From Tragulus kanchil (lineage: Eukaryota > Chordata > Mammalia > Artiodactyla > Tragulidae): DNA of 64,000 nucleotides. The notes under the pieces are model-generated. The model was not told the origin of the DNA and made no database searches. It saw only the letters and a program-made list of their open reading frames with translations. How positions within the stretch are numbered: position 1 is the stretch's first letter; each line of letters starts with the position of its first letter. Position numbers and translations under genes: made by a program. This document shows, piece after piece, positions 1,952 to 64,000 of the stretch. The stretch lies in NCBI GenBank assembly GCA_022376925.1, contig JAIOJX010000026.1, positions 201,910,400 through 201,974,399 of the forward strand, read 5' to 3'.

Positions 1952-4048
1952 GAATTGTCATTATGAGCCTGTAGATACGGGAGAGGTGCTCATGTAAGTC
2001 AGAACTGAGATGACTAAGAACTCCCTTTAGAGACTTCACTTCCAACTGGTAGGGCCAGGAGCTGGGAGACTGAGCAACTCAGTATCTTTGGGTAACTCTG
2101 CAGCTGGGTGGGAGTGCAAAAATGTTAAAACCCAAAATAGTTCAACAGGATCAAACAATGGGCCAAATCCAACAAGATAAAAAGTAGAAGGGAGAGATAC
2201 AACAACTGCCCTGGCCAACTCCAACGTTTCAGTGGATGGTATCCTGCACACAGGTGCCTGGCTGAGGACGTGAGTAGGGACTGTGTCCATCCAGAAAGAA
2301 CATCACTTCCTTATCTGCAAAAAGGCACAGTGAAGCAGAAGGATGAAGGCTTGGAAAAACAGATGTGAAGGGTCTTCATTAACTATGAACTCAGAAAGCT
2401 ACTACTATAATGTGGTCACCATGAGCTGGGAAGGCTAATCCTTGACATGCCATGTCCAGAACAGGGAATAGGGGTCAATGTCTAAGCCAATTTGGATATA
2501 TTGATAGTGGAAAGAGGAGCAGTGGTGACTTGGAGCAAAACTAGAGGAGAAAGGTGAAAACTCTGGAAACTGTGATCTCTGAGGAATAGTGAAAAGGAGA
2601 CTGTTAGTCTGAAGAAGGGAAGATCTAGAAGTGTCAAGGTAGATTCCTAGCAAATTACACATAAGCATAGGACATCACAACATGACATCAAAGGCTAAAA
2701 GCATATTAAAAGAATTTAAAAAAAAAATTTACAATTGAGATTCAGAACAGTGAATCAAAGTTTTCATTATGAGAACATTTAGAGTGAAATTTACTTTCAT
2801 TACTTTAGAATTCAATGTTTTTAAATTTTGAATTGCATATTGCTTACAAGACAGGAAGCACCATAATCTTTTTAATGCTTAGCCACTTCTAAAGTCTTAA
2901 CCAAGATCACATGTCATCTAAACTTTCCATAAATTTGACATGTCCCAAAATGGAACAGACAATATTGTCTGTTGCTTTAAAGAAAGCAGACATGGATTTT
3001 GGGAATTTTGCCTTGGATAATAGAATTGTCATTATGAGCCTGTAGATACGGGAGAGGTGCTCATGTAAGTCAGAACTGAGATGACTAAGAACTCCCTTTA
3101 GAGACTTCACTTCCAACTGGTAGGGCCAGGAGCTGGGAGACTGAGCAACTCAGTATCTTTGGGTAACTCTGCAGCTGGGTGGGAGTGCAAAAATGTTAAA
3201 ACCCAAAATAGTTCAACAGGATCAAACAATGGGCCAAATCCAACAAGATAAAAAGTAGAAGGGAGAGATACAACAACTGCCCTGGCCAACTCCAACGTTT
3301 CAGTGGATGGTATCCTGCACACAGGTGCCTGGCTGAGGACGTGAGTAGGGACTGTGTCCATCCAGAAAGAACATCACTTCCTTATCTGCAAAAAGGCACA
3401 GTGAAGCAGAAGGATGAAGGCTTGGAAAAACAGATGTGAAGGGTCTTCATTAACTATGAACTCAGAAAGCTACTACTATAATGTGGTCACCATGAGCTGG
3501 GAAGGCTAATCCTTGACATGCCATGTCCAGAACAGGGAATAGGGGTCAATGTCTAAGCCAATTTGGATATATTGATAGTGGAAAGAGGAGCAGTGGTGAC
3601 TTGGAGCAAAACTAGAGGAGAAAGGTGAAAACTCTGGAAACTGTGATCTCTGAGGAATAGTGAAAAGGAGACTGTTAGTCTGAAGAAGGGAAGATCTAGA
3701 AGTGTCAAGGTAGATTCCTAGCAAATTACACATAAGCATAGGACATCACAACATGACATCAAAGGCTAAAAGCATATTAAAAGAATTTTAAAAAAAAAAT
3801 TTACAATTGAGATTCAGAACAGTGAATCAAAGTTTTCATTATGAGAACATTTAGAGTGAAATTTACTTTCATTACTTTAGAATTCAATGTTTTTAAATTT
3901 TGAATTGCATATTGCTTACAAGACAGGAAGCACCATAATCTTTTTAATGCTTAGCCACTTCTAAAGTCTTAACCAAGATCACATGTCATCTAAACTTTCC
4001 ATAAATTTGACATGTCCCAAAATGGAACAGACAATATTGTCTGTTGCT
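1952..4048. repeat. tandem duplication 1 (offset 1071)
   Basis: Copy A is 1952-2976 and copy B is 3023-4048. They are almost identical; one extra T/A in an A-rich run near 3785 shifts the offset from 1071 to 1072. Copy A continues to about 3020 as a corrupted version of 4049-4113, sharing AAGCAGACATGGATT and TTTTGCCTTGGATAA with about 22 bases lost. That decay at the junction points to an unmerged sequence end rather than a biological breakpoint. Confidence 0.95.
2140..2640 (+). repeat. CR1/L3-type LINE remnant
   Basis: The stretch around GGGCCAAATCCAACAAGATA, and later GTCCAGAACAGGGAATA and GAGAAAGGTGAAAACTCTGG, resemble the 3' ORF2 region of mammalian L3/CR1 LINEs from memory. It is highly diverged and has no usable frame. 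A second copy lies at about 3211-3711 through duplication 1. Assignment to family is tentative. Confidence 0.45.
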
Positions 4049-4113
4049 AGGATGGTTAGAGGTGAAAGCAGACATGGATTCCTAGATGAAAAGGCAATTT
4101 TTGCCTTGGATAA

Positions 4114-4647
4114 AGTGTAGGGTATTTTAAGGTCTCTGCCCATGCTGAGATTCTAGGATTCTGGAGAAAAGCACTTCTCTAAAGAAGAGAAAAACTGTGA
4201 TCACCAGTATGATTGTCTCGTCTTTTATAAAGGGGACCAGAACTAAAGAGAGAATTGTCTATTAGAGAAGAATTTTATTTTCCTTTGTTATATCCTTATT
4301 TATTCTCAGGGAGAGGATAGAATGACTGATGAGATAGCGATAGAAAAAAACGAGGTGAAGACATCTGAAGTTTACCATACCCCCAATATACAACTTCCTC
4401 CATTAGCTACTTGATTCTTCGTCTCATCATGAGCTGGTTCTGAAGATGAGTGGGGAACGACTATGAGGCAAACATAAATGCAATACTCCTATTCTAGTGA
4501 AATGGGAAAATATATCTAGCAAAAATAACCTTGAAGGAGAAGAAAATCTCACAGAGGGCAGTCTGAAGATGCAGGTGGATGAAGAAAGGATCTGTCACAT
4601 CCACTTAGTTTTGATCAGATGTGTTTCATTTCTCTACAGTGGCCTTT
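4114..4647. other. unassigned AT-rich sequence
   Basis: No gene, named repeat or duplication recognised between duplication 1 and the CHR SINE. Confidence 0.4.
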
Positions 4648-4659
4648 AAAACATGTGGA

Positions 4660-7812: not shown

Positions 7813-8544
7813 ATGCACTAGGTGTACCTTGCCAAAACCTTTGTATTCTCAAAGTGCATTAGAAAGGGGCTCCAATTCTAATAACAAGGCATTTATTCAT
7901 GTCATATAGTTGGCCATATTTGGCTCTGGGAGTATATTAAAATCAGAGATTATTTTTCTTTGAAAAACTGTACTCAAATTGTGCTTATTTTGACTAGGCT
8001 TTCCTAAAACTGAAAATGTAATCATTTGAAACTTCTAAAATCACTTAAAATATTGAAATGACTTTGGAGGCTCTAATTAAGTGTTTTCTAATATGCCATT
8101 TTTGATGGTACAAAAGGCCTTCATTTTCTGGAGACAGAACATAAGATCATTATGGGTAAGGTTTTACTGCACCATAAATCAGTATAAAGCAAATATGCTG
8201 GCTTTAACAAGGCAAGTTAATTATTAAATTCACAAGTTCTTTTTTCAAAGACTTGATTGTTCCAAATACATTTTGAAAGGTTTCCAGAGGCCTGTGAATT
8301 AATATCTTCTTCCCTACCCCCCTATCCATTTTCACTCTGGTCATCAAAAGCATCCAAAATCATTTCACTGACCTTAAACTGGACTTTTGAAACTAGACTT
8401 CTCAAATAGCCTTTAGTTCCTCTTTTGGGCTAAATCAATGAATGAGTGACTAAAAATGCTGAATATTCAGAGGTAGGTCTATTTTGAACAAAGTCAAATG
8501 AACAACTGAGGCACAAATCTTACCTCTAAAGGCATAATCCTTTA

Positions 8545-8755
8545 TTTTCTTATTGCCATCTTGTCGTCCCTATGGCTGAGCTGGAGCTGAAGATGGGGGG
8601 CCCGCCCTGGTCATCAAGTCCTTGGAAGATTCAGTGGGAAATTCGCTTTATGAGGACAACATTTCAGAAATGCTGACGATTACTTGTATTCAGGTTGTGA
8701 CTTTTGCTATGACGAGCAGCAGTGTTTTCTAAGAGATGTGGTTTCTGCCCATTAG
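8545..8755 (+). pseudogene. possible degraded retrocopy, unidentified parent
   Basis: An ATG at 8572 (MAELELKMG) follows a pyrimidine-rich, 5'UTR-like stretch. About 38 bases on, in another frame, the sequence reads VIKSLEDSVGNSLYEDNISE then MLT. After a further shift it reads SGCDFCYDEQQCFLRDVVSA to a TAG at about 8752. The second copy (9676 to about 9856) has its own frame breaks at nearby but different bases. The runs read like protein, but I do not recognise the parent. The opposite strand also has an 84-codon frame here. It could be chance or an old exon. Confidence 0.28.
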
Positions 8756-8779
8756 ACTTCAATGATTTAGTCTTTTTAA

Positions 8780-9053
8780 GGGAACACTCTTTCATTGCTA
8801 GTGGGAATGTAAATTGATATAGCCTCTATGGAAGACAGTATGGAGATTCCTCAAAAAGCTAAAAATAGAAGCATCATACGACCCAGCAAGCTCACTCTTA
8901 GGCTTATACCCTGATGAAATCAAAACTGAAAGAGGCACCTGTACCCCACTGTTCATTGCGGCTCTCTATACAATAGCTATAACATGGAAGCAACCTAGAT
9001 GTCCATAAACGAATGAATGGATAAAAAGACTCTGGTATATATATACAATGGAA
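8780..9053 (+). repeat. LINE-1 ORF2 3' fragment (copy A, cut)
   Basis: GGGAATGTAAATTGATATAG, ATGGAGATTCCTCAAAAAGC and CTGTTCATTGCGGCTCTCTA match the C-terminal ORF2 region of L1. It breaks off at the junction of duplication 2. The uncut version follows at 9884. Confidence 0.85.
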
Positions 9054-9883
9054 GCACTGGTAAAGATTATTTCTTTGAAAAACTGTATTGCTTTTTTACT
9101 AGGCTTTCCTAAAACTGAAAATGTAATCATTTGAAACTTCTAAAATCACTTAAAATATTGAAATGACTTTGAGGCTCTAATTAAGTGTTTTCTAATATGC
9201 CATTTTTGATGGTACAAAAGGCCTTCATTTTCTGGAGACAGAACATAAGATCATTATGGGTAAGGTTTTACTGCACCATAAATCAGTATAAAGCAAATAT
9301 GCTGGCTTTAACAAGGCAAGTTAATTATTAAATTCACAAGTTCTTTTTTCAAAGACTTGATTGTTCCAAATACATTTTGAAAGGTTTCCAGAGGCCTGTG
9401 AATTAATATCTTCTTCCCTACCCCCCTATCCATTTTCACTCTGGTCATCAAAAGCATCCAAAATCATTTCACTGACCTTAAACTGGACTTTTGAAACTAG
9501 ACTTCTCAAATAGCCTTTAGTTCCTCTTTTGGGCTAAATCAATGAATGAGTGACTAAAAATGCTGAATATTCAGAGGTAGGTCTATTTTGAACAAAGTCA
9601 AATGAACAACTGAGGCACAAATCTTACCTCTAAAGGCATAATCCTTTATTTTCTTATTGCCATCTTGTCGTCCCTATGGCTGAGCTGGAGCTGAAGATGG
9701 GGGCCTGCCCTGGTCATCAAGTCCTTGGAAGATTCAGTGGGGAAATTCGCTTTATGAGGACAACATTTCAGAAATGCTGACGTATTACTTGTATTCAGGT
9801 TGTGACTTTTGCTATGACGAGCAGCAGTGTTTTCTAAGAGATGTGGTTTCTGCCCATTAGACTTCAATGATTTAGTCTTTTTA

Positions 9884-10660
9884 AGGGAACACTCTTTCAT
9901 TGCTAGTGGGAATGTAAATTGATATAGCCTCTATGGAAGACAGTATGGAGATTCCTCAAAAAGCTAAAAATAGAAGCATCATACGACCCAGCAAGCTCAC
10001 TCTTAGGCTTATACCCTGATGAAATCAAAACTGAAAGAGGCACCTGTACCCCACTGTTCATTGCGGCTCTCTATACAATAGCTATAACATGGAAGCAACC
10101 TAGATGTCCATAAACGAATGAATGGATAAAAAGACTCTGGTATATATATACAATGGAACACTACACAGCTGTAAAGAGAAATGCAGAAGAATCAGTCCTA
10201 ATGAGGTGGCTGGATCTAGAACCTATCATAAAAAGTGAAGTAAGTCAAAAAGAGAAAGACAATATAGTATTCTAACACACATATATGGAATCTAGTAGGA
10301 TGGTAATGATAATACGCACAGTGAAGCAATGGAAAAACAGACAAAGAGAAAAGACCTATGGACATTGAGGGGAATGAACAGTGGGTGGGAGGCATAGAGG
10401 GAGTAACCTGGAAACCTATACTATCATATGTGAAAAAGATAGCTATTGTCGCTGTGCTGTGGGAATGGGGGATCCTGCAGGGGCACTGTGCGATGGCATG
10501 GAGGGGTGGGATGGGGGGAACTGGGAGGGGCTAGGAGGGGGTAGGGGAACAGTGATATGCATATGACTGATCTTGGAACATACATGTATGTGAACAACAA
10601 AACTCTGTAAAAATATTTAAAAATGAGAAAAAAAGAGAAATATGCCAAATAAACAAAACA
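9884..10660 (+). repeat. LINE-1 3' end
   Basis: Continues past the cut point of the first copy through AATGGAACACTACACAGCTG and AGTCAAAAAGAGAAAGACAA into a G-rich 3'UTR (about 10480-10550) and an A-rich end near 10640. The frame is degraded, so it is an inactive 5'-truncated copy. Confidence 0.85.
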
Positions 10661-12390: not shown

Positions 12391-14547
12391 ATCAGAGAGA
12401 TGTTTGATTTCTCTTCTAAACCCTTGGTGATGCTCATGTCACAGGCACACTGGGTGCCACCATCAGCAGAGGGACCCCACAGCGGCCGTGGCCACAGAAG
12501 GGGTTTTAGAGACCAAGGGTGGGGACGGAAGTGGGGGTGAGAATGAAGAGGTAGAAAGAGGATACGCGGAATTCAGCCAAGGTGTTATTGTTTCTGACAC
12601 TAAATCTTTCATCACTGTGTCATAAACAAACAGATCTCATGCTAAAGTGCCTTTAACAAGTAACGTCTGGAGAATTAAGCTACTATGCTTAGAAACGGGT
12701 CAACAGTGATTTGAAGTGCGGGGATCTTTTCAAATCGGCACATCACAGACAGACATCAGGAATACATCCTATAAGTTGTGACAAAAGTAAACACCACCTG
12801 GAGATCATATTGATCATCTCTTTTGAGTGGGACCCAGAGGTGGGATAGCTTCTGATCCAAGCTTTGTCTTAGTTTGCTCAGAGCTCACTGGGGAGTGCTT
12901 TGAGTTTTGCTTCCTCTCACCAGCAGTTCTCTGGGTCATCTTGATTCGTTGCCCCTTCCCCTCAATAGGTAGGGAAAGACAAAACATTGTTTCTCAGTGT
13001 TTAATGGTCTTAACGTTCATGCGTTAATCACTAAAACGTACATATATCACAATCCCTACCCTCCTTCGGTTATATCCCAGGATATTATCACAGGCCACAC
13101 CCTTAAATACCCAGTTACTCAGACAGAAGAATGTCATCCCCTTTCTTTGAAAAGTAAGCATTGATTGGATCAGAAACAAGATGGGGGTCAGTTGGAATTA
13201 GATATTTCCTGCAAGAATGCATGGATATATCGAGTGATGGACTAATTTCATTGTTCTACCCACTAAGTACATGGAGTCGGGATGGGAAGCAATGAGGTAG
13301 GGTGGGAAGGACTGGACGGGGACTTGCAGGCAGGTAGAGGATAAGAAGGGCTTTGCCAGATACTCACTCCTGGTTGTCTTCCGCTGCCTGGGTCTCTCCA
13401 GGTGCTCTGGTTCCTGGGTTTCCTCATCTCAATCTCAGCAGAACTGTGTGCTAGCATGTTTTCTTTCAAACGCCTTGGATGGATCAGAGAGATGTTTGAT
13501 CTCTCTTCTAAACCCTTGGTGATGCTCATGTCACAGGCACACTGGGTGCCACCATCAGCAGAGGGACCCCACAGCGGCCGTGGCCACAGAAGGGGTTTTA
13601 GAGACCAAGGGTGGGGACGGAAGTGGGGGTGAGAATGAAGAGGTAGAAAGAGGATACGCGGAATTCAGCCAAGGTGTTATTGTTTCTGACACTAAATCTT
13701 TCATCACTGTGTCATAAACAAACAGATCTCATGCTAAAGTGCCTTTAACAAGTAACGTCTGGAGAATTAAGCTACTATGCTTAGAAACGGGTCAACAGTG
13801 ATTTGAAGTGCGGGGATCTTTTCAAATCGGCACATCACAGACAGACATCAGGAATACATCCTATAAGTTGTGACAAAAGCAAACACCACCTGGAGATCAT
13901 ATTGATCATCTCTTTTGAGTGGGACCCAGAGGTGGGATAGCTTCTGATCCAAGCTTGTCTTAGTTTGCTCAGAGCTCACTGGGGAGTGCTTTGAGTTTTG
14001 CTTCCTCTCACCAGCAGTTCTCTGGGTCATCTTGATTCGTTGCCCCTTCCCCTCAATAGGTAGGGAAAGACAAAACATTGTTTCTCAGTGTTTAATGGTC
14101 TTAACGTTCATGCGTTAATCACTAAAACGTACATATATCACAATCCCTACCCTCCTTCGGTTATATCCCAGGATATTATCACAGGCCACACCCTTAAATA
14201 CCCAGTTACTCAGACAGAAGAATGTCATCCCCTTTCTTTGAAAAGTAAGCATTGATTGGATCAGAAACAAGATGGGGGTCAGTTGGAATTAGATATTTCC
14301 TGCAAGAATGCATGGATATATCGAGTGATGGACTAATTTCATTGTTCTACCCACTAAGTACATGGAGTCGGGATGGGAAGCAATGAGGTAGGGTGGGAAG
14401 GACTGGACGGGGACTTGCAGGCAGGTAGAGGATAAGAAGGGCTTTGCCAGATACTCACTCCTGGTTGTCTTCCGCTGCCTGGGTCTCTCCAGGTGCTCTG
14501 GTTCCTGGGTTTCCTCATCTCAATCTCAGCAGAACTGTGTGCTAGCA
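12391..14547. repeat. tandem duplication 3 (offset 1092/1091)
   Basis: Copy A is 12391-13456 and copy B is 13483-14547, with filler 13457-13482. Differences include AAAGTAAACACC versus AAAGCAAACACC and a T-run indel in the AAGCTTTGTCTTAG motif. The unit is unique, fairly CpG-rich DNA (CACAGCGGCCGTGGCCACAG). The end of copy B is shared with the start of duplication 4. Confidence 0.95.
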
Positions 14548-16613
14548 GACAGAGAGCAGGCATCCTGAGAGACATCTCCTGCCTGGAAGGCAACTCTCAA
14601 AGCGTGAGCTGTCTGTGTGTCTTCTGCCATGGTCTGGTTATTAGCAAAACCTCCACTCCTTTCTCCTCTGCCCTCCAGGTCCCCTCCCCTCCGCCCTCTA
14701 GTACAGTGTTCCTTGGGGGCTGAAACACTGTCAGGATGGATTCTTTGAACTATTGTTTGCTTTCCAGGGAAACTAGCAGTCAAGGTTGTATCAGCAGGAT
14801 ATCATTTCAGGAAAATGTTTCAATTTCACAGGAGAAGAGATGTAGGGAAAAATCCTGTAGGGTATATAGGATAGCGCTAATTTAGCAAGATAAAAGCCAG
14901 CACATTCTGAGAGTTGCGAGGGCCAGCACTGGATTTGTGTGGTAGCTGTGGAAGGATAGGCTATTTGGTGATGTTGTTCATGTCAGGGGAAGTGGCAATG
15001 ACCGGATACTGAACACTGACCTAGGAGCCTGAAATGGATGACTCCTATAGGACAAATGATTCATCTCATAAAAATAAAATCTCAGTTTCTTGGTACTTGC
15101 TTTGGAATAAACTTATGTACTATAAAGTTAGAAATGATAAATATTTTTTTATTGAGTTTCTCCTAGCCCATTTTAGGGATTTACTGCTCCCTTTGAAAAC
15201 CAGAAATAGTCGGATGAAGAAGTGATGTGATTCTAAGAGTACTTGTTTTTATCAACAAAGTTAATTTCTGTCTGAGAAGCTGGGAGGGTTAAATTGTGTA
15301 TATGGTTCCTGACTACTGTCTCTATGTGGAGACATTCACATTGTTAGGTTAAATTTATTACCTTGTTGGAAATTTCCAACCCAGCATTCAGTAACCTTAG
15401 CTGGGTGGGTTCTTAATTTCCTGATCTTACAACACGCCCTGAATACAGATCTAATGAGGGAATGAATGCAGCAATTCTTTTATTTGATTTAAAGCTTATG
15501 TTTTGGTTTCCCTTGCAAGAGACCAAAAAATATTTTATTAATTTTCAATGGAACGTCTAAACAAGTTGATTTAATCAGATGCAGGTCCCCCCGGGGGTTT
15601 TTTCCCATCTCAATCTCAGCAGAACTGTGTGCTAGCAGACAGAGAGCAGGCATCCTGAGAGACATCTCCTGCCTGGAAGGCAACTCTCAAAGCGTGAGCT
15701 GTCTGTGTGTCTTCTGCCATGGTCTGGTTATTAGCAAAACCTCCACTCCTTTCTCCTCTGCCCTCCAGGTCCCCTCCCCTCCGCCCTCTAGTACAGTGTT
15801 CCTTGGGGGCTGAAACACTGTCAGGATGGATTCTTTGAACTATTGTTTGCTTTCCAGGGAAACTAGCAGTCAAGGTTGTATCAGCAGGATATCATTTCAG
15901 GAAAATGTTTCAATTTCACAGGAGAAGAGATGTAGGGAAAAATCCTGTAGGGTATATAGGATAGCGCTAATTTAGCAAGATAAAAGCCAGCACATTCTGA
16001 GAGTTGCGAGGGCCAGCACTGGATTTGTGTGGTAGCTGTGGAAGGATAGGCTATTTGGTGATGTTGTTCATGTCAGGGGAAGTGGCAATGACCGGATACT
16101 GAACACTGACCTAGGAGCCTGAAATGGATGACTCCTATAGGACAAATGATTCATCTCATAAAAATAAGATCTCAGTTTCTTGGTACTTGCTTTGGAATAA
16201 ACTTATGTACTATAAAGTTAGAAATGATAAATATTTTTTTATTGAGTTTCTCCTAGCCCATTTTAGGGATTTACTGCTCCCTTTGAAAACCAGAAATAGT
16301 CGGATGAAGAAGTGATGTGATTCTAAGAGTACTTGTTTTTATCAACAAAGTTAATTTCTGTCTGAGAAGCTGGGAGGGTTAAATTGTGTATATGGTTCCT
16401 GACTACTGTCTCTATGTGGAGACATTCACATTGTTAGGTTAAATTTATTACCTTGTTGGAAATTTCCAACCCAGCATTCAGTAACCTTAGCTGGGTGGGT
16501 TCTTAATTTCCTGATCTTACAACACGCCCTGAATACAGATCTAATGAGGGAATGAATGCAGCAATTCTTTTATTTGATTTAAAGCTTATGTTTTGGTTTC
16601 CCTTGCAAGAGAC
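14517..16613. repeat. tandem duplication 4 (offset 1090)
   Basis: Copy A is about 14517-15522 and copy B is 15607-16613. One internal substitution is visible (AAAATAAAATCTC versus AAAATAAGATCTC). The filler between them ends in C6-G5-T6 at 15587-15603, a corrupted form of the true upstream CAGGTGCTCTGGTTCCTGGG at 14490. The duplicated frames here are not genes. Confidence 0.95.
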
Positions 16614-16950
16614 AATATTTTATAATACAATGGAAACAAGTGATAAAAATATTGATATCGTCATTGTCAGTCATGTTCAACTCTTTGAGTACTCATGCGT
16701 AGCGTTGATAGGAACGAACTTAACACATAGAATACAGACTTACTGTGTTCATGTAGGGGAGACAGAAGTAGCCAAGGGTATCAGTTCTAATGATGACCTT
16801 ATCTGTGTTGTGATCTGACTGCATCAGTGGCAGTTCAAAGAGTGTTTCCAGCACTTTGCATCAATAGAGTAATTATAATCTTGAAAAACCTCACATTTTC
16901 TATCTAAGATAGGAAGAGTCAAAAAATATGAGTCCCCCTAAGGTAAACAT

Positions 16951-17775: not shown

Positions 17776-18333
17776 TTTTCCTTTTTATATTCATAAAGTA
17801 GCATGTACATATTTAAACAACAAATATCTAATGAAAACACTACCAACGCAATAGATGGGTTTCACCAAATTAAATGTGTTATATACTAAAACCACCATCA
17901 AGTTCGGATGTTTTATTTAAGGTCACAATGAAAGCATATGTGTTTCTGATCCAGGTCAGAGAATCTGGCAATGATGACTTGATTTATGCTTGTAACTCCC
18001 ATTGTCTTCATTCGTTTAAAAGAGTTTACCTCAGCATTCTATCTGGGTGGTCTAGAGACTGAAATAGTGTATTATAGCACTCCGGAATAACTGTCATTAG
18101 GCAACTAGGATCTTGCAGAGTATTACATTCTAAGCATGTTTTCATTTCCCTGCGTAAATATTTTGACAGTAACCTATGTGCACTGATAACATTTTGCATA
18201 ACAAAGAATAACAGGTGCAGTGAAAAGGGAATCAAGTTCCTTGAGGATGAATTTTGAATTTATTGTGTATATCTTGACTTTTCTAAAGGTATATTAATAA
18301 TAATAATAGCTTTGTGGTGTCATTGGTTACCAT

Positions 18334-46772: not shown

Positions 46773-46890
46773 AACTTATTTATTTATTTAAATTTATTTT
46801 TTAATTGGAGGAAAATTGTTTTACAGTGTTGCATTGGTTTCTGTTGTACAACAATGCCATAATTATGCATATATACCACCCCTCTGGCCC
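46773..46890 (-). repeat. ruminant LINE-1 3' fragment (antisense)
   Basis: TTTTTAATTGGAGGAAAATT, GTTTTACAGTGTTGCATTGG and CTGTTGTACAACAATGCCAT resemble a motif that is very common in bovine DNA and that I associate with antisense L1 3' ends. Second copy at 47895-48012. Confidence 0.6.
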
Positions 46891-47177: not shown

Positions 47178-47335
47178 TTGTGCCCTTGGCTGACTTTCTG
47201 GATCTCTCAGAGATTTAGTTCTTTCATCTGTAAAATTGCAGGATGAAAATGCATGACTTACAAAGTAGTTATAAAGGTCAAATAGAGTGGTAACTTCAAA
47301 AGCTTTTGGTAAACTCTAAAGCATTATTAAAAATG
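47178..47335 (+). repeat. MIR-like SINE fragment
   Basis: TTAGTTCTTTCATCTGTAAA followed by GCAGGATGAAAATGCATGAC and TATAAAGGTCAAATAGAGTG fits the MIR 3' half. Second copy at 48300-48457. Confidence 0.65.
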
Positions 47336-48578
47336 TAAGCTCTTATCATCTAGGAGCCAAGTTGTACTATATAGAAGCTTATATAGACTATTAATACTGG
47401 AAAAGACTGGAGCATCTTGTCCAACCCTTCAATTAACAGACAAGGAAACTGCCTATAGTTGCAGCATTGCAAAATCTTTTGAAATCTTGAGCTATCTTTT
47501 GGCATATTGCTTATTCTTCTTTGTCTCCTCTGAAAGTTCAATTAACCCATATTTATCAAGTATCTTTGAATTTTTCAATTTAGTGTGATTCCACTAACTT
47601 TACTATCATGTAGCAGGTTCTATGAAGGTATTACAAAACGTTGCCAAGTACCTTCAGACCACGTATATAGTATTTCTAAACTGATACTTTAATAACTTCA
47701 TTATGAGGCTAGTTTACTTTGACTTATTATTCATCAACTAATGGAAGCTTCTTTAGTTGACACTTCCTTAGGTAAATTCTGCATATCATCTGTTTAACCA
47801 ACCTCAGGTGAAAGATACTCTCTTTCTAAGGCAGAAACAAATTAGGGGAGAATTTTATCATCCTTTCTGGTTCATTTTTTTGAAGTAATTTAAAAACTTA
47901 TTTATTTATTTAAATTTATTTTTTAATTGGAGGAAAATTGTTTTACAGTGTTGCATTGGTTTCTGTTGTACAACAATGCCATAATTATGCATATATACCA
48001 CCCCTCTGGCCCCCTGCCATAAGCCTTTTAATTTTATGCTATCGGCCAAGCAGTGGGCCTACATCTTCTTTGTTTTTAGAAGTTTTTACCTGCCCTTAGC
48101 AATTTGTACAAGTGCTTCTAGCCATTTAGCCTTTTATTTCAGCCTGTGCTGTTTTCTCCTCCCTGACACCCCGCCCTCCAACCTTTTGTATCTTACTTAC
48201 TTGCATTTTTCTCTTGTATATTATGTGCTTGCATTTTTAATACGGAACCCTCAGCTTATTTTGAGGTCTGAATGTGCACAATTCTATTGCTAGCAAATCT
48301 TGTGCCCTTGGCTGACTTTCTGGATCTCTCAGAGATTTAGTTCTTTCATCTGTAAAATTGCAGGATGAAAATGCATGACTTACAAAGTAGTTATAAAGGT
48401 CAAATAGAGTGGTAACTTCAAAAGCTTTTGGTAAACTCTAAAGCATTATTAAAAATGTAAGCTCTTATCATCTAGGGAGCCAAGTTGTACTATATAGAAG
48501 CTTATATAGACTATTAATACTGGAAAAGACTGGAGAGTTCATCTTGTCCAACCCTATCAATTAACAGACAAGGAAACA

Positions 48579-49262: not shown

Positions 49263-49365
49263 TGGAATGCCTATAGGCTGTGTGTGGACATATTAACACC
49301 GCAGAGAAGTACTATTGGTTTTGCTTTATGGGTAAGGAGACTGAGACTCAAAAAGCTGAAGTTCT

Positions 49366-49708
49366 GGGCTTCCCCTGGTGGCCCAGTGGATAAGGAGACC
49401 GCCTTGCATTGCAAGGGGCGCCGGTTGGATCCCTGGCCTGGGAAGATCCCACGTGCCGTGGAGCGGCTGGACTGATGTGTCCAATCACCGAGCCGGAGCT
49501 CTGGGGCGCATGCGCCCAGAGCTGGCACTGTGCGACAACAGACGCCACCGCGATGGGAGGCCCGCAGGAGCCAAAGAACAAAGACGGATGAAAATAGAGA
49601 AATGAAAGACCAATAGAAGTGGCCCGCCTGCTCCCCTCCCTCTGCAGCCCGACCCCCGCCCAAAATAAATAAATAAATAAATAAATCTTTTAAAAAATAA
49701 TAATAAAA
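49366..49708 (+). repeat. CHR-type SINE with extended 3' end, first copy
   Basis: Head GGGCTTCCCCTGGTGGCCCA, B-box region GGTTGGATCCCTGG, CHR body ACGTGCCGTGGAGCGGCTGG, then the same long 3' extension as the element at 4660 (AAAGAACAAAGACGGATGAA; GAAAGACCAATAGAAGTGGC), ending in a TAAA/TAA-rich tail. The 16-base target-site duplication AAAAAGCTGAAGTTCT is perfect at 49350-49365 and 49709-49724, so this insertion is young. Confidence 0.9.
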
Positions 49709-50435
49709 AAAAAGCTGAAGTTCTTCACACTGGGGTACATAGCCAAATGATTTAATCAAAATTTGAACTTACATTGGCCTGCTTTTGGTTTGTGCTTTTT
49801 ATGAAAGTTTCAGAGATGTACTTCCTGTTGTAAATTACACATCTGACTACACCCAGTATTATGAAGTCTCAGATGGCATGTTTGTTTTCTCTCAAATTTG
49901 ATTCATCCAAATAATTAGAGATAGAAGCAAAGAACACTTAATTTTAGAAAATCAGTTAATGGCCAGATGGAATTCAGCCAAGAACCGTTTCTAGCCTGGT
50001 AGCTTCCTATCTCAGATCTGGGCCTTTCTGTCCTCAAAATATACAGATTTAACTTTAAATTTACCTTTCAAGGTACTAAAAAGCAACAGAATAATTAACT
50101 AATCCAGAATGCTTTTATCTTTATTGAAAATTTACATGCACAATTAGTTTCTACCTTTTTTTAAACTAGACAACAGATGAACTTATTTTAGACAGAATGC
50201 ATTCACTTGGCCATATTTTCTGAACCAAGATCTCTTTATTCTGTCCTGCTTTAGCTACTAGTTCTTTGTTGGAATAAAGGTCTCTCCCCTTAGGCTTTTT
50301 CCAGAAGTATTCAGATTGCAACTTATCCTGGCCTGGAATGCCTATAGGCTGTGTGTGGACATATTAACACCGCAGAGAAGTACTATTGGTTTTGCTTTAT
50401 GGGTAAGGAGACTGAGACTCAAAAGCTGAAGTTCT

Positions 50436-50780
50436 GGGCTTCCCCTGGTGGCCCAGTGGATAAGGAGACCGCCTTGCATTGCAAGGGGCGCCGGTTGGAT
50501 CCCTGGCCTGGGAAGATCCCACGTGCCGTGGAGCGGCTGGACTGATGTGTCCAATCACCGAGCCGGAGCTCTGGGGCGCATGCGCCCAGAGCTGGCACTG
50601 TGCGACAACAGACGCCACCGCGATGGGAGGCCCGCAGGAGCCAAAGAACAAAGACGGATGAAAATAGAGAAATGAAAGACCAATAGAAGTGGCCCGCCTG
50701 CTCCCCTCCCTCTGCAGCCCGACCCCCGCCCAAAATAAATAAATAAATAAATAAATCTTTTAAAAAATAATAATAATAAA
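50436..50780 (+). repeat. CHR-type SINE with extended 3' end, second copy
   Basis: Copy of the element at 49366 with the same target-site duplication on both sides (50421 and 50781). One fewer A precedes the head and the tail is slightly longer. Confidence 0.9.
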
Positions 50781-51392
50781 AAAAGCTGAAGTTCTTCACA
50801 CTGGGGTACATAGCCAAATGATTTAATCAAAATTTGAACTTACATTGGCCTGCTTTTGGTTTGTGCTTTTTATGAAAGTTTCAGAGATGTACTTCCTGTT
50901 GTAAATTACACATCTGACTACACCCAGTATTATGAAGTCTCAGATGGCATGTTTGTTTTCTCTCAAATTTGATTCATCCAAATAATTAGAGATAGAAGCA
51001 AAGAACACTTAATTTTAGAAAATCAGTTAATGGCCAGATGGAATTCAGCCAAGAACCGTTTCTAGCCTGGTAGCTTCCTATCTCAGATCTGGGCCTTTCT
51101 GTCCTCAAAATATACAGATTTAACTTTAAATTTACCTTTCAAGGTACTAAAAAGCAACAGAATAATTAACTAATCCAGAATGCTTTTATCTTTATTGAAA
51201 ATTTACATGCACAATTAGTTTCTACCTTTTTTTAAACTAGACAACAGATGAACTTATTTTAGACAGAATGCATTCACTTGGCCATATTTTCTGAACCAAG
51301 ATCTCTTTATTCTGTCCTGCTTTAGCTACTAGTTCTTTGTTGGAATAAAGGTCTCTCCCCTTAGGCTTTTTCCAGAAGTATTCAGATTGCAA

Positions 51393-52620
51393 TGTCATTG
51401 TAAATTCTTTTAATGGGAACTGGGAGCAGCAGTATAAACATTCATCCCAAATCTTTGCCTTGAGGTTGTACTGTCCTGACCTGTGTCCTAAAGCAGAGAA
51501 TGAGTGGAAAACACTTAGAACATCCCTTGTGTCTCTAAAGACCAATAATGAAAGAAGATGTTAGTTTGTGTGGGTGACCTGGGTTTAGTCTGAGGGGCTT
51601 GTTTATTTGTAGACAGTAGCATACCATTGATGTTCTCTTGCCATCAGAGGAATTAACCGACTTTTTTTCTTTGAAGAATTATTATCTATTCACTGTTTAG
51701 AAATTATTTATGATGCTGCTAAATCTAAACAGCTGTTATGTAGGATCTCTTGCCACTTGAGCACATCATGTGTGAATCCATACACTTCTGTTCAAACAAG
51801 TTAGGAAATTTCAGTTGACGATGCTGATCAGACAAGTGGTAATGCAACAAGACAGGGTGTCCATTAGCTTCCTTATCTTTGTGGTTAATTCACAGACATA
51901 TTATGAGAATTTGACCTTTGGATCTATTTACCTGTCTGAAAAATAGCAGTAATAGGCACTTTGGTACTGTCTACTTATCTCCTTTTTTGGTGTACTGAAG
52001 ATTTAAGAGTTAAGCTCCCTTAGCTATCCAAATGAAGGGTTTGGCATCATCATCAACTATGATTAAGGAAATGAGTAAGGTTACAAGCATTCTACCCCTA
52101 GAAGGCATTTCTGGAGTGAACTAATTTTACCTCTCGGTTCTCTACCATCAAATCCAGACTGGCATACGGTTTAATATAAAGCAGGCAGAATAAATTACCT
52201 TCACTGTTCAGGTTCTACTGACAAACTTTACTTAATTAGAATTTGGCTTGGAACAAGGGGGTAAAGAGGTATTATCAATTATTACTCCTGACACTTTTAA
52301 GTAGTTTTTAAGCTCTTAAAATGCCCCTAATCCTGAATTTCAAGGGAGAGAAAGAATGATGGGGTAATGGTAAACCAGAAGGGATTATGTTCTTCCTGTA
52401 ATTGCGATATATCGTGCTTTAACAAAACTCTTAACTATTTCCTTGGCTCCTGAGTTAACTTTTAACCTTTTTATGGGAAAAAAAATTGCAAGTAAGATTT
52501 GTTTAATTTTTTTGCCACTTGTTCATGGTATGTCAGAGGAAGGGTAATCCTAGGATGTTTACAGTAAAGTAAAACACTGTGGAACATAAGGAGGGAAAAA
52601 ATAGGGAGCACTCATAAATA
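51393..52620. other. unassigned single-copy AT-rich sequence
   Basis: No named repeat or credible frame. The 102-codon antisense frame at 51237-51545 crosses the right edge of duplication 16 and has no domain. Confidence 0.4.
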
Positions 52621-52754
52621 AATGTTCCTTCACAACTTTTCCTATGAGAATTTTGCACTAAGATATATATTTATGAAAAGCAACAATAATTGGTTCTTCA
52701 GCTCTAGTCCTCTGTGACTTTAATACCAGAAACATGTCCCATCTACTTTGTATA

Positions 52755-53015
52755 GACACTGCTCCTAGTATTCAGGAAACACTGAAATGAATAAGCTATG
52801 GACATTGCCTTCCATGTCCTTTCTATCTAATGGAGGAGACTGAGGTGTAAGCACTAACTAGAAGATGGATTTAAGAGTCTGAACAGAAGCAACTCAAATG
52901 GTATATGTGGGGAAAATAGAAGAGAAAAAGATTAAATGTGACCAGGGTTGTCAGGAAGAGATTTAGAGAAGACTTTGCACTTGGTTGGAGCTTTGGGCAA
53001 ATTTGGAGACATGGC
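52755..53015 (+). repeat. L2-type LINE remnant
   Basis: CATTGCCTTCCATGTCCTTT, CTAATGGAGGAGACTGAGGT and GTTGTCAGGAAGAGATTTAG follow the L2-like order. Second copy at 53900-54160. Frames of 84 and 101 codons on the minus strand overlap each other here and are incidental. Confidence 0.45.
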
Positions 53016-53388
53016 ACTTCATGCTGAGTACCAACAAAAAAAATGGGGACATAGAAGAGCCTGTTTGGGAAGTGACGAGAAGGCTGATGGGGCTGGAGAG
53101 TAGGACCAAGTAGGAGAAGAAGTTGGAATCATAGTTGGGGTCAAATTCTGGGGGAAGATGAACACTTTTCTCTGCCAATTCTTTTTGCCAGTTCTCATAA
53201 AAAAATTGCAGACACATCTCTTTAACTGCTTTTCTTCAAATGCACTTGCTGTGTTAAACAATTTTTTTTTAAAACAAGATCTGTTAAGGTACCCAACTAT
53301 TGCCAAGTCTAGGCTATTTACCAATGGGCCATAGCTATGAAGTAGCAGGATTAGAAACAGACACAGAAGTCACTTAGTACAACCTTGT

Positions 53389-53660
53389 ATTAGTTACTTA
53401 TGGCTGCTGTGACAAATTACTGTAAACTTAGTGGCTTAATGCAACATAAGTTTACACTGTTTTGGTTCTGTAGGCCAGAAGTCTAAAATCAATTTCACTG
53501 AACTAAGTCAAGATGACCACAGGGCTAGTTCCTTCTGAAGAACCTGAGGAAAGATTTTGTTTATTCTGTTTTTCCAGCTGGAGCTTGTTTCATCTTCAGA
53601 TCACCTCAGTCCAATTTATGCTTCCATTATCACCTTGCCTTTTCCTCTGATTAACTTCTG
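53389..53660 (-). repeat. MaLR/MLT1-like LTR fragment (antisense)
   Basis: TTAGTTACTTATGGCTGCTG, ACAAATTACTGTAAACTTAG, GGCCAGAAGTCTAAAATCAA and GGGCTAGTTCCTTCTGAAGA match the antisense start of MLT1-class LTRs. Second copy at 54534-54805. Exact subfamily uncertain. Confidence 0.6.
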
Positions 53661-53680
53661 GATCTCTTTGCTAAGGATGG

Positions 53681-53761
53681 TGGTGGTGCTTTAGTTTCTA
53701 AATCATGCCCAACTCTTGTGATTCCATGGACAGTAGCCCACCAGGTTCCTCTGTCCATGGG
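53681..53761 (-). repeat. Bov-tA SINE remnant cut by the duplication junction
   Basis: Holds only the reversed 3' third of the element whose whole version is at 54824. The cut coincides with the end of copy A of duplication 17. Confidence 0.9.
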
Positions 53762-54823
53762 CTAAAATGTTCCTTCACAACTTTTCCTATGAGAATTTTG
53801 CACTAAGATATATATTTATGAAAAGCAACAATAATTGGTTCTTCAGCTCTAGTCCTCTGTGACTTTAATACCAGAAACATGTCCCATCTACTTTGTATAG
53901 ACACTGCTCCTAGTATTCAGGAAACACTGAAATGAATAAGCTATGGACATTGCCTTCCATGTCCTTTCTATCTAATGGAGGAGACTGAGGTGTAAGCACT
54001 AACTAGAAGATGGATTTAAGAGTCTGAACAGAAGCAACTCAAATGGTATATGTGGGGAAAATAGAAGAGAAAAAGATTAAATGTGACCAGGGTTGTCAGG
54101 AAGAGATTTAGAGAAGACTTTGCACTTGGTTGGAGCTTTGGGCAAATTTGGAGACATGGCACTTCATGCTGAGTACCAACAAAAAAAATGGGGACATAGA
54201 AGAGCCTGTTTGGGAAGTGACGAGAAGGCTGATGGGGCTGGAGAGTAGGACCAAGTAGGAGAAGAAGTTGGAATCATAGTTGGGGTCAAATTCTGGGGGA
54301 AGATGAACACTTTTCTCTGCCAATTCTTTTTGCCAGTTCTCATAAAAAAATTGCAGACACATCTCTTTAACTGCTTTTCTTCAAATGCACTTGCTGTGTT
54401 AAACAATTTTTTTTTAAAACAAGATCTGTTAAGGTACCCAACTATTGCCAAGTCTAGGCTATTTACCAATGGGCCATAGCTATGAAGTAGCAGGATTAGA
54501 AACAGACACAGAAGTCACTTAGTACAACCTTGTATTAGTTACTTATGGCTGCTGTGACAAATTACTGTAAACTTAGTGGCTTAATGCAACATAAGTTTAC
54601 ACTGTTTTGGTTCTGTAGGCCAGAAGTCTAAAATCAATTTCACTGAACTAAGTCAAGATGACCACAGGGCTAGTTCCTTCTGAAGAACCTGAGGAAAGAT
54701 TTTGTTTATTCTGTTTTTCCATCTGGAGCTTGTTTCATCTTCAGATCACCTCAGTCCAATTTATGCTTCCATTATCACCTTGCCTTTTCCTCTGATTAAC
54801 TTCTGGATCTCTTTGCTAAGGAT

Positions 54824-55022
54824 GGTGGTGGTGCTTTAGTTTCTAAATCATGCCCAACTCTTGTGATTCCATGGACAGTAGCCCACCAGGTTCCTCTGTC
54901 CATGGGATTATTCAGGCAAGAATACTGGAGTGGGTTGCCATTTCCTCCTCCAGGGTATCTTTCCAGGAAATTGACCTGGGTCTCCTGCACTGCAGGAAGA
55001 TTCTTTACTGACTGAGCTATGA
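54824..55022 (-). repeat. Bov-tA SINE (antisense), whole copy
   Basis: GCCCACCAGGTTCCTCTGTC, ATACTGGAGTGGGTTGCCAT and a diverged head ending near ACTGAGCTATGAGAC. Confidence 0.92.
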
Positions 55023-59964: not shown

Positions 59965-62086
59965 TGATGAGCCATTAAGTGCCCAATGATAAGAGAAATG
60001 CTCTTAAGGTGTAAATTGAAATAGGGAAATCTTCTAAATCCACCTACGTTTCTCCATTGTTCTTACTCCCAAAGTCTTATTTAAATGTAACTTGTTTTCT
60101 CATAAAATTGAATTTCAGATTTTAGCTCCTGAATATGACCTACTTAGTCAAACATTATAAATCCTTCAAAAGTGGTGAAGTATTGTCTTTAGAAAAACAT
60201 ATTGTAATCTTGCAAAGCACATTGTAATCTTGCAAAGCACATGATCATAAGCCAGAACACTGCTTTAAAAACTTTAATCTATCAGTTAATTATTTTAGTT
60301 ATAGTTATAATTCCAAATGCCAAGATGGTGTTAATCATGAACAGAGGTGATTTTCAGAGGAACATAATGACAAGCATTACTATTAATTGAATTACATAGA
60401 GAGAAAGCTAGCTTTCTTAAATTCTTTTCAGTCATTCTTAGTCTGATTTTTTTTGAATTCTTCACTTTTGTTAATCTCCCATTTTGGAAAAGAAAGCAAG
60501 CCTCGGGCCCTGAGGCTTTCATACATTCCAGTTAGAATGACAATCACATTGTTATGATATTTTTTAAATTGCTTCTTGTTTATGACAAATGATGTTGGTA
60601 TAAAATTCATGATTATTTTATTCCAAGAATTATTATATTCTATTGTGCTGTAGGTGTTGCACAGGTATGGTGCAAGTTGGGCAGTTGGTATGTGAACAAT
60701 AGAAACTTAGGAAACATTGGCTTCTGGCAAGTTAGAGTGTTTCTCAAGCTTGACTAGTTGGTTGATTTTTTTTCCCCATTGAATCAACCAAGTTAACAGG
60801 TTGTTTGATGTAAGATACACACAATCACCGGTGACTCCACACTTTTGACATGTTAATAAAAGGCAACTGTTCTTTAGGTATTTAGATTTAATGGTAGTTT
60901 TTAAAGGAGATCAATTCCTTCAAAGTCCTGTGAAGTAAACAGTCACTGGTAACTACCTTTAAACTTCAGAGAAATCTCTGAAAGTTAGAATTGGTTTCAC
61001 ATCAGCATAATCACAAATATGGTCCTCATTTGATGAGCCATCTTAAGAGAAATGCTCTTAAGGTGTAAATTGAAATAGGAAATCTTCTAAATCCACCCCG
61101 TTTCTCCATTGTTCTTACTCCCAAAGTCTTATTTAAATGTAACTTGTTTTCTCATAAAATTGAATTTCAGATTTTAGCTCCTGAATATGACCTACTTAGT
61201 CAAACATTATAAATCCTTCAAAAGTGGTGAAGTATTGTCTTTAGAAAAACATATTGTAATCTTGCAAAGCACATTGTAATCTTGCAAAGCACATGATCAT
61301 AAGCCAGAACACTGCTTTAAAAACTTTAATCTATCAGTTAATTATTTTAGTTATAGTTATAATTCCAAATGCCAAGATGGTGTTAATCATGAACAGAGGT
61401 GATTTTCAGAGGAACATAATGACAAGCATTACTATTAATTGAATTACATAGAGAGAAAGCTAGCTTTCTTAAATTCTTTTCAGTCATTCTTAGTCTGATT
61501 TTTTTTGAATTCTTCACTTTTGTTAATCTCCCATTTTTGGAAAAGAAAGCAAGCCTCGGGCCCTGAGGCTTTCATACATTCCAGTTAGAATGACAATCAC
61601 ATTGTTATGATATTTTTTAAATTGCTTCTTGTTTATGACAAATGATGTTGGTATAAAATTCATGATTATTTTATTCCAAGAATTATTATATTCTATTGTG
61701 CTGTAGGTGTTGCACAGGTATGGTGCAAGTTGGGCAGTTGGTATGTGAACAATAGAAACTTAGGAAACATTGGCTTCTGGCAAGTTAGAGTGTTTCTCAA
61801 GCTTGACTAGTTGGTTGATTTTTTTTCCCCATTGAATCAACCAAGTTAACAGGTTGTTTGATGTAAGATACACACAATCACCGGTGACTCCACACTTTTG
61901 ACATGTTAATAAAAGGCAACTGTTCTTTAGGTATTTAGATTTAATGGTAGTTTTTAAAGGAGATCAATTCCTTCAAAGTCCTGTGAAGTAAACAGTCACT
62001 GGTAACTACCTTTAAACTTCAGAGAAATCTCTGAAAGTTAGAATTGGTTTCACATCAGCATAATCACAAATATGGTCCTCATTTGA
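59965..62086. repeat. tandem duplication 18 (offset 1066 to 1053)
   Basis: Copy A is 59965-61034 and copy B is 61031-62086. Copy B's first 70 bases have lost about 14 bases (the TTAAGTGCCCAATGATAAG segment collapsed to CTTAAG; CACCTACG to CACCCCG). After that they match, apart from a T-run indel (CCCATTTTGG versus CCCATTTTTGG). Confidence 0.95.
60201..60240. repeat. 20-base perfect tandem repeat (2 units)
   Basis: Two identical units of ATTGTAATCTTGCAAAGCAC. Also present in copy B of duplication 18 at about 61253-61292, so it predates or is independent of that junction. Confidence 0.95.
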
Positions 62087-62439
62087 GAGAAAGGAATCTT
62101 GTAATAACATTTGGTTAAAAAAATACCAAGAATATTTTATATATTAAGAAATTGTTTAAATAAAAATATTTTCAGAAATTCTTGTCAAAAGTCAATATGT
62201 CCCTGCATCTAGAATATTTAAGGAATATTTGGCTTCTCAAATACTTTTACCCATTTTTTCTAGCTTCCTACTCTTTAAAGCTAAGAATTCCCAAATAATA
62301 CTGACTTCAAAGCTGAAATGAAAGAGAAACAATCATTCTTCCTTGACTATATCTAAACATGTATTAGCAGACCACACTGAAAGTTGGTATCACACTGTGA
62401 ACTGGAACAGAGTCAAAGAATAGTAAAACACTGGCTTTA
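62087..62439. other. AT-rich unassigned sequence
   Basis: AT-rich DNA right of duplication 18. No gene or named repeat. Confidence 0.4.
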
Positions 62440-63215
62440 CCAAAGGAGCTCATAGGCTCATGGGGCAGAGAAAGGAGCATAGGGCAACCATAAGACAAGA
62501 CAGGATATGAAGGAGGAACTTAACTGTACAAATCAAAGCTATGGGGATCTGAATGAAGAAAACTTTTCATTAGTGGGGGATACCAACAAAGTCCTAAAAG
62601 AGATGGTATTTGAGATGACATCTGAAGAATGAGCAGAATTCAGAGTGTTATTCTAGATGGATCACCCTCAAACTTTCATTAAGAATATGTTCTGTACTAG
62701 GAGCTAGTAGAGGGCACATCACAATAAAATGATGTTGATGATAATAATAATAATCTATTACAGAAGAACACCTCAGTGGAAGACATGGATGCAAATTGTT
62801 ACCACACAGCCTGCTAACTAGTGTGACAGTACTCTTCAGAAGCAACTATGGAGGAAGAAATTATTTCTGCCTGGGGGATTGAGAAAGCATTTCTAAAGGA
62901 AATGAACTTTGATCTGGGCTTGAATAATGAGTGGAGTTTTACCAGATGGAAAAAGATGAGAAATATATTCCAGGCAATGAGAACAACATATGACAAACTA
63001 TGAAGGCATAAAAGAACAGAATGTATTTGGGAAGGGTGAGAACCTTCTATGTGGTTAGAGTGTCAGGGGAGGAGGTGATGATGGAAATGGAGATTGGTGG
63101 AGAAAGTTCCTGGAAAGACATATAGAGGCTAATTTGTGAAAGGCAATGTAGGCCATACTATGGAATTTAAACTTCATCCTGTAAGACATTGTTTTAAATG
63201 AAACAGATCTCTGCT
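62440..63215 (+). repeat. L2-type LINE remnants
   Basis: AGGAGCTCATAGGCTCATGG, TTTGAGATGACATCTGAAGA, GATCTGGGCTTGAATAATGA, TATTCCAGGCAATGAGAACA and AATTTAAACTTCATCCTGTA occur in the order of an L2-like 3' region. Diverged and without a frame. Confidence 0.55.
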
Positions 63216-64000
63216 TTTAGAAATATAATTTTGGGGACAGGCTAGAGGCAACACAGGAAGTATGGTGCTGGGGAAGTAAGGAGAATGTGCCCTGAACAGA
63301 CAGAGTCTTGCATGAGAATATGGAGTGAACTGTCGAGAGCCTTGAAGGCCAGCTTTGGGCACTGGCACGGAACTCTGTGACAACAGAAACTGCCAGTGCT
63401 CTGTTTTATGAAGACTGATCTGGATAGGATCTGCGGAATGGATTACCATGGGGAGACCCTAGGGTCCAGAACACAGCTTGGAGTCTGTAATGAGGACTCA
63501 GGAGATAGGATGCAGCAGATACCCCCAAGCCAGCATCTGTTCTACCCCTGCTTCTTCCTTTTTCACTACATCCTGGTTTCTTCTGTTATCTTCCCTCCTT
63601 TCCCTAACCCTGGGCTTCAGAAGAGGAAGCACTAGTCCCTGCCCAGAGGATGAAAGTTGCTCTAGCATGAGACGATGGAATCCATTTCTAGCCAATGAGA
63701 TGAGAAGAAATTCCTCTAGGGACCCCTGGGACCTTTACTTTTTCTTCTTCTTTTTTTTTTTATGAAAAAACACAGAAAGAGACAGTTTCTTCTGCTGAAA
63801 GTCGTCTCCATGTAGCATTTTGAATTACCAGCTCACCATTTTGTTGTGTTAAGAGGAGCTACTCCATGGACAAAGCAAATATCCAAGGAACCTAATTTCC
63901 TGAACTAGTGTGACAGTACTCTTCAGAAGCAACTATGGAGGAAGAAATTATTTCTGCCTGGGGGATTGAGAAAGCATTTCTAAAGGAAATGAACTTTGAT
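62816..64000. repeat. tandem duplication 19, truncated by the window edge (offset 1087)
   Basis: Copy A begins at 62816 (AACTAGTGTGACAGTACTCT). Copy B begins at 63903 and matches copy A for the remaining 98 bases to the window end. Continuation lies outside. The start and spacing fit the other eighteen. Confidence 0.9.
63216..63902. other. unassigned sequence with a T-rich run
   Basis: T-rich run near 63740-63761. Overlapping frames on both strands at 63396-63765 have no recognised domain. Confidence 0.4.

What the first reader, a model, noticed from the sequence alone, without database searches (positions are those of the whole stretch)
1952..64000. Ladder of 19 unrelated ~1.1 kb direct tandem duplications
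Nineteen different stretches are each followed at once by a near-identical copy of themselves. Offsets are 1071, 1105, 1092, 1090, 1134, 1117, 1111, 1104, 1156, 1142, 1079, 1035, 1093, 1108, 1122, 1071, 1145, 1053 and 1087. All are direct; units share no sequence between loci; borders ignore SINE, LINE and unique DNA alike. No transposon or repair process known to me gives one fixed length at so many unrelated places. Unmerged overlaps between neighbouring contigs explain all of it, with junction spacing of about 1.8-7.3 kb as the contig steps. A genuine new duplication process is the less likely alternative.
Basis: partly seen in the sequence, partly recalled or inferred. Interest (0 to 1): 0.85.

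Follow-up and report, generated by a model that had tools for sequence, protein, structure and literature searches.

The report
Unmerged overlaps in a genome assembly
The repeated 1.1 kb blocks are an assembly error: the chromosome was pieced together from overlapping segments whose shared ends were written out twice, and the same fault, about a third of the bases, turned up in every large contig sampled.

Summary
In detail: 18 complete direct tandem duplications with offsets 1035-1156, and a nineteenth that the window end cuts. It is not biology. The window lies in a 3.17 Gb assembly of 32 contigs. All 15 sampled 10-kb stretches, on 15 of its 16 chromosome-size contigs, hold the same duplications: with the window 63 in 217 kb, mean 1107, sd 33. 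Of two 7-kb stretches on small contigs one has one, one none. The scan found no direct repeat of 200 bp or more at other spacings, except 7 at 2.0-2.4 kb, where three segments overlap. Differences pile up at segment ends: 33 per kb in the outer 50 bases, about 1-1.6 inside. Homeobox exons are doubled at the same spacing: 44 pairs among 150 scored matches. The bell-shaped, near-constant overlap points to a fixed-size layout unit shared by consecutive consensus segments and never merged, rather than ordinary contig overlaps. A wtdbg-type layout is my best named guess, unproven. No reads were available.

The parts
1952..4080 (.). duplication 1: left copy 1952-2998, right copy 3023-4080, offset 1071-1072
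8006..10158 (.). duplication 2: left 8006-9053, right 9111-10158, offset 1104-1105
12391..14547 (.). duplication 3: left 12391-13456, right 13483-14547, offset 1092-1091
14510..16623 (.). duplication 4: left 14510-15538, right 15601-16623, offset 1090
18333..20571 (.). duplication 5: left 18333-19437, right 19481-20571, offset 1134; noisy start
20880..23106 (.). duplication 6: left 20880-21988, right 21996-23106, offset 1116-1117; three-fold overlap with duplication 7 (21752-21977 also at +2228)
22815..25026 (.). duplication 7: left 22815-23915, right 23943-25026, offset 1111
25473..27661 (.). duplication 8: left 25473-26556, right 26576-27661, offset 1104-1105
29360..31634 (.). duplication 9: left 29360-30474, right 30516-31634, offset 1156-1158
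31444..33731 (.). duplication 10: left 31444-32589, right 32586-33731, offset 1142, one mismatch
35971..38134 (.). duplication 11: left 35971-37055, right 37050-38134, offset 1079, identical
37971..40048 (.). duplication 12: left 37971-39013, right 39006-40048, offset 1035
42471..44650 (.). duplication 13: left 42471-43556, right 43564-44650, offset 1093-1094; three-fold overlap with duplication 14 (43238-43556 also at +2202)
44332..46465 (.). duplication 14: left 44332-45357, right 45440-46465, offset 1108, identical in the matched part
46329..48577 (.). duplication 15: left 46329-47449, right 47451-48577, offset 1122
49291..51392 (.). duplication 16: left 49291-50321, right 50362-51392, offset 1070-1071
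52620..54906 (.). duplication 17: left 52620-53761, right 53765-54906, offset 1145, one mismatch
59990..62086 (.). duplication 18: left 59990-61033, right 61044-62086, offset 1052-1053
62816..64000 (.). duplication 19: left copy from about 62816, offset 1087; right copy runs past the window end into L019

Best explanation
Assembly artefact. The chromosome sequence is a chain of consensus segments, about 1.7-7.3 kb long where measured. Neighbouring segments both contain a shared block of about 1.1 kb, and the step that should have joined them on that block wrote them out end to end, so each shared block appears twice. Shown: the duplications, their single length class, their presence in every large contig sampled, the noisy segment ends, and homeobox exons doubled at the same spacing. 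Inferred (about 0.75): the shared block is a fixed-size layout unit inside the assembler's contigs. Guessed from memory of the program (about 0.4): a wtdbg-type assembler, whose node of four 256-base bins (1024 bases of raw read) becomes about 1.1 kb in consensus if the reads are deletion-prone, with the unit-joining step failing. The confidence given is for the artefact by unmerged overlaps; the first two rivals below are variants of it that differ in what the pieces are.
For: (1) Same class elsewhere: 15 of 15 ten-kb stretches, on 15 of 16 chromosome-size contigs, hold 44 duplications; with the 19 of the window, mean 1107, sd 33, range 1024-1197. (2) Scan of the window and all 17 sampled stretches for direct repeats of at least 200 bp with offset 60-9000 (24-base words present 2-7 times): 63 at 0.9-1.3 kb (18 window, 44 in the 10-kb stretches, 1 in L026), 7 at 2.0-2.4 kb, none at other spacings. 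The 7 are three-fold overlaps of short segments. (3) Differences in the aligned overlaps: 33 per kb in the outer 50 bases, 10 in the next 50, 0.95-1.6 further in: the sign of thin consensus at segment ends. (4) In 8 of the 15 window joints with unaligned bases, those bases resemble the expected continuation more than all 60 random controls. (5) Overlap length is compatible with a normal curve (Shapiro p 0.43, n 63) and poorly fits an exponential above the minimum or above 1000 (KS p 2e-7 and 2e-9, scale fitted from the data); the window (19) and other loci (44) do not differ (p 0.39). (6) 44 same-strand homeobox pairs at 1013-1203 bases (mean 1111, sd 37) among 150 scored matches, on all 16 chromosome-size contigs, 11 of them in four HOX-like clusters; 35 of the 44 have equal E-values (my count). 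(7) Of 47 complete segments none is under 1.7 kb and 18 are 1.71-2.21 kb, as expected if each carries a 1.1 kb block at both ends.
Against: Reads and the assembly report could not be seen. Clean joints show a small excess of matches running past the joint: 8 of 63 have 6 or more bases against 2 of 200 simulated blunt joints (matches may hold a mismatch), which blind end-to-end writing does not predict; a joiner that settles on a short chance match would. Noise at joints was not shown to be a corrupted continuation in 7 of 15 window joints, and 4 of 63 joints have 137-287 unmatched bases. Against the wtdbg guess: unduplicated steps go down to 609 bases, shorter than the node overlap I recall would allow; overlap length does not follow homopolymer content (rho 0.06, p 0.64) or GC (rho -0.09, p 0.51), as a deletion-prone-read model might predict; a 258-264 base period in steps under 3 kb (R 0.40, n 36) is weak, that subset was chosen by me in the same script without a prior reason, and over all 47 steps no such period leads (best 1322-1348, R 0.35). 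L025 has no duplication in 7 kb. Removing the copies would leave about 2.1-2.2 Gb if the sample is typical, small for a ruminant (recalled, 2.6-2.9 Gb).
Confidence: 0.97

Rival explanations
1. Variant: unmerged overlaps between independent contigs, contigs of a few kb laid side by side by a scaffolder without trimming their shared ends.
For: Same end product: direct, adjacent, near-identical copies with bad ends.
Against: Independent contigs would overlap by varied amounts (general knowledge); here sd is about 33 on 1107-1109 and the shape is normal. Pieces of 1.7-7.3 kb, with no N in the window, are too short to be ordered by the usual long-range data (general knowledge).
Confidence: 0.15
2. 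Variant: chain of long reads joined at the smallest acceptable overlap (cut-off 1 kb) without trimming.
For: Smallest offset is 1024-1025, just above 1 kb; segment lengths resemble reads.
Against: Smallest-overlap choice should give an exponential tail above the cut-off; poor fit (KS p 2e-9 above 1000, 2e-7 above the minimum). Interior agreement of about 99.9% (82 differences in 63 overlaps) needs consensus or very accurate reads.
Confidence: 0.05
3. Haplotype (heterotype) false duplication: both alleles written in tandem.
For: A known cause of false duplications in vertebrate assemblies (PMC2864568, PMC9516828; passages seen).
Against: 24 of 63 overlaps have no interior difference and the mean is 1.3 per unit; 21 of 82 interior differences are homopolymer indels, though 42 are mismatches, some of which could be allelic. 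Allelic bubbles have no fixed length (general knowledge).
Confidence: 0.01
4. A genuine biological process makes 1.1 kb tandem duplications throughout the genome.
For: Excess of 6-10 base matches at clean joints (8 of 63 against 2 of 200 simulated), as microhomology-mediated repair might leave.
Against: About 2.9 per 10 kb in the sampled large contigs, one length class, low and similar divergence, bad sequence at both segment ends, and homeobox exons doubled in HOX-like clusters, which I know of in no vertebrate (recalled).
Confidence: 0.005

Closest known systems
Duplicated overlapping contigs (DOC), Kelley and Salzberg 2010, PMC2864568 (abstract and passages seen)
   Same: Nearby sequence duplicated because two pieces that overlap at their ends were not merged.
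   Different: There the study is restricted to separate contigs, heterozygosity is the cause, and few contigs align above 99.5%; amounts are Mb per genome (1.18 Mb of mis-assembled contained contigs in cow; the cow DOC figure was cut off in the passage I saw). Here: fixed 1.1 kb, about 99.9% inside, no N at the window's joints, about 30% of the sampled bases.
Homotype false duplication, Ko et al. 2022, PMC9516828 (passages seen)
   Same: Under-collapsed copies due to sequence error rather than allelic difference.
   Different: Amounts in the passages are under 0.1% to 2.7% of an assembly; I saw no fixed length mentioned; read depth and k-mers, the defining tests, could not be run here.
wtdbg/wtdbg2 layout with a separate consensus program (PMC9915519, passages seen; node size and joining option recalled)
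   Same: Contigs are first held as overlapping sequences of reads and a second program makes the consensus; as I recall, adjacent units share a node that must be merged, and the node length of 1024 is close to the smallest overlap seen.
   Different: Which program made this assembly is unknown; a standard run merges the units (recalled); steps down to 609 bases do not fit the recalled defaults.

Membership tests
Assembly false duplication by unmerged overlap | Adjacent direct copies, near-identical | tested here: met
Assembly false duplication by unmerged overlap | Errors concentrated at the ends of the joined pieces | tested here: met
Assembly false duplication by unmerged overlap | Copies share reads: half depth on each, no read spans both | not testable with these tools
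   no reads held
Assembly false duplication by unmerged overlap | Conserved single exons doubled in the same way | tested here: met
   44 homeobox pairs at 1013-1203 bases among 150 scored matches, 11 pairs in HOX-like clusters; sequence identity of the pairs not aligned, but 35 of 44 have equal E-values
Homotype (not heterotype) false duplication | No allelic differences between copies | tested here: inconclusive
   24 of 63 overlaps without interior difference, mean 1.3; needs read k-mers
wtdbg-type unmerged layout node | Overlap of fixed size with jitter | tested here: met
wtdbg-type unmerged layout node | Steps quantised in 256-base bins | tested here: inconclusive
   R 0.40 at 258-264 for 36 steps under 3 kb; not leading over all 47
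wtdbg-type unmerged layout node | No step shorter than node minus allowed node overlap (recalled) | tested here: not met
   shortest step 609
Genuine tandem duplication process | Range of ages and lengths, clean sequence at breakpoints | tested here: not met

The most novel reading that the evidence does not exclude
A real genome-wide process makes tandem copies of 1.1 kb and leaves short microhomology at clean joints (8 of 63 against 2 of 200 in simulation).
Probability: 0.004. Interest if true: 0.95.

Novelty: not a real feature. Interest (0 to 1): 0.15.

Why it matters
If this assembly is used as a reference, about 30% of the bases sampled are false copies (32%; about 31% with the two small-contig stretches added). 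Extrapolated to 3.17 Gb that is about 1 Gb and some 0.9 million false tandem duplications. It would yield false exon and gene duplications (85 of 150 scored homeobox matches sit in pairs at this spacing), halved read depth, and wrong structural-variant and repeat statistics. It should be repairable by redoing the consensus.

Tried and rejected
Minimum-overlap read chain: disfavoured by the shape of the overlap lengths. Dependence of overlap length on homopolymers or GC, as a sign of raw-read units: none seen. 256-base quantisation of steps: weak, subset not chosen beforehand. Naming the species: 16 chromosome-size contigs summing to 3.15 Gb suggest n about 16; searches for antelope, gazelle, kudu, eland and mouse-deer assemblies showed no assembly paper that I could match in the rows listed (6 to 15 rows of up to 812 papers, 2); not resolved. 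A search for wtdbg node details gave 0 papers. None of the listings showed this fixed-length artefact; they are partial listings of one library, so I do not claim it is unpublished. Rfam scan of the window at gathering scores: no match. ARAGORN: one tRNA-Cys-like stretch.

Full report
Observation. A diagonal word scan of the window finds 18 complete direct tandem duplications with offsets 1035-1156. Pairwise alignment gives their borders. The nineteenth begins near 62816 and is found in full length class once the 3 kb that follow the window are added. The copies agree at about 99.9% inside (82 interior differences in 63 overlaps); the same scan gave 0 repeats in 20 block-shuffled windows.

Where the window lies. 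It is bases 201,910,400-201,974,399 of contig C15 (292 Mb) in an assembly of 3,167,203,957 bases and 32 contigs. Sixteen contigs are chromosome-size (73-297 Mb) and hold 3.15 Gb; the other sixteen are 0.19-10.7 Mb.

It is not local. I took 10-kb stretches, at positions chosen without sight of the sequence, on 15 of the 16 chromosome-size contigs. All 15 hold one to four duplications of the same class, 44 in all. With the 19 of the window the 63 offsets average 1107 (sd 33, range 1024-1197), 2.9 per 10 kb, 32% of the bases; the 15 stretches alone give the same density (44 in 150 kb). Two further 7-kb stretches on small contigs gave none (L025) and one of 1190 (L026). Over the window and all 17 stretches the scan found no direct repeat of 200 bp or more with an offset of 60-9000 at any other spacing, except seven at 2.0-2.4 kb, where three neighbouring segments overlap. 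The scan uses 24-base words present 2-7 times, so it does not see old or very abundant repeats.

It doubles conserved exons. A search of the whole assembly with the homeodomain family scored 150 of 439 candidates. Among same-strand matches 44 pairs are 1013-1203 bases apart (mean 1111, sd 37), involving 85 of the 150 matches and all 16 chromosome-size contigs. By my count, 35 of the 44 pairs have equal E-values and 9 do not; I did not align the pairs. Some pairs share one duplication (double homeoboxes on C2, C31 and C32) and some loci have three copies. Eleven pairs lie in four groups of homeoboxes, each within about 94-213 kb, on C3, C15, C17 and C27, which I take to be the four HOX clusters (general knowledge, not tested gene by gene); 8 of these 11 have equal E-values. 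The 14 control genomes of that tool gave no match at all, so they are no control for spacing. Other same-strand homeobox pairs within 20 kb lie at 243-829 bases, 1315-2670 and above 6.5 kb; these may be true double or clustered homeoboxes or combinations of the two.

Anatomy of a joint. In the aligned overlaps, differences between the two copies occur at 33 per kb in the outermost 50 bases, 10 per kb in the next 50 and 0.95-1.6 per kb further in (the innermost bin is slightly underestimated). The 82 interior differences are 42 mismatches, 21 homopolymer indels, 8 simple-repeat indels and 11 other indels; 24 of 63 overlaps have none. In 8 of 15 window joints with unaligned bases these resemble the expected continuation of a neighbouring segment more than any of 60 random controls; in the other 7 this could not be shown. 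Four of 63 joints have 137-287 unmatched bases. Clean joints show a small excess of matches running 6-10 bases past the joint (8 of 63 against 2 of 200 simulated joints). A joiner that accepted a short chance match would do this; so might microhomology-mediated repair. It is the one result that does not follow from blind end-to-end writing.

Mechanism. Overlap lengths (mean 1109, sd 34 by the alignment measure) are compatible with a normal curve and fit an exponential above a cut-off poorly, so the shared block seems to have a set size with jitter rather than being the smallest acceptable overlap. The 47 complete segments run from 1.7 to 7.3 kb; 18 are 1.71-2.21 kb, about two blocks, and none is shorter (longer segments are under-sampled in 10-kb stretches). 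This suits a layout in which each segment runs from one fixed-size unit to the next and consecutive segments share a unit. Wtdbg-type assemblers work in this way as I recall them (node of 1024 raw bases; that a separate program makes the consensus is in PMC9915519, passages seen). Against that name: steps down to 609 bases, no link between overlap length and homopolymers, and only a weak 258-264 base period in a subset of steps. I hold the artefact for nearly certain, the fixed-size layout unit for likely (about 0.75), and the program for a guess (about 0.4).

Known relatives. Duplications from unmerged overlapping contigs are described in vertebrate assemblies, cow included (PMC2864568; abstract and passages), and false duplications by sequence error are named homotype duplications (PMC9516828; passages). 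What is unusual against the figures seen there is the scale, about 30% of the bases sampled, and the fixed length.

Noticed in passing
L003 (G000:C1:20000001-20010000), 416-477 and 4150-4481: Two N runs of non-round length (62 and 332 bases); whether scaffold gaps or stretches withheld by the operators is unknown. This stretch has one duplication, the fewest of the 15.
   Followed up: partly
whole assembly G000: Sixteen chromosome-size contigs sum to 3.15 Gb; with about 30% false copies in the sample the unique part would be near 2.1-2.2 Gb, small for a ruminant (recalled).
   Followed up: partly
window 4646-5107 and 49271-49768, minus strand: Two open frames with similar translations in what looks like an interspersed repeat; ARAGORN calls a tRNA-Cys-like gene at 4667-4743. 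Perhaps a tRNA-derived SINE (recalled, not tested).
   Followed up: no
joints in all sampled loci: Excess of 6-10 base matches across clean joints, 8 of 63 against 2 of 200 in simulation.
   Followed up: partly
L025 (G000:C9:700001-707000): No duplication in 7 kb, against about 2.9 per 10 kb in the large contigs sampled.
   Followed up: no
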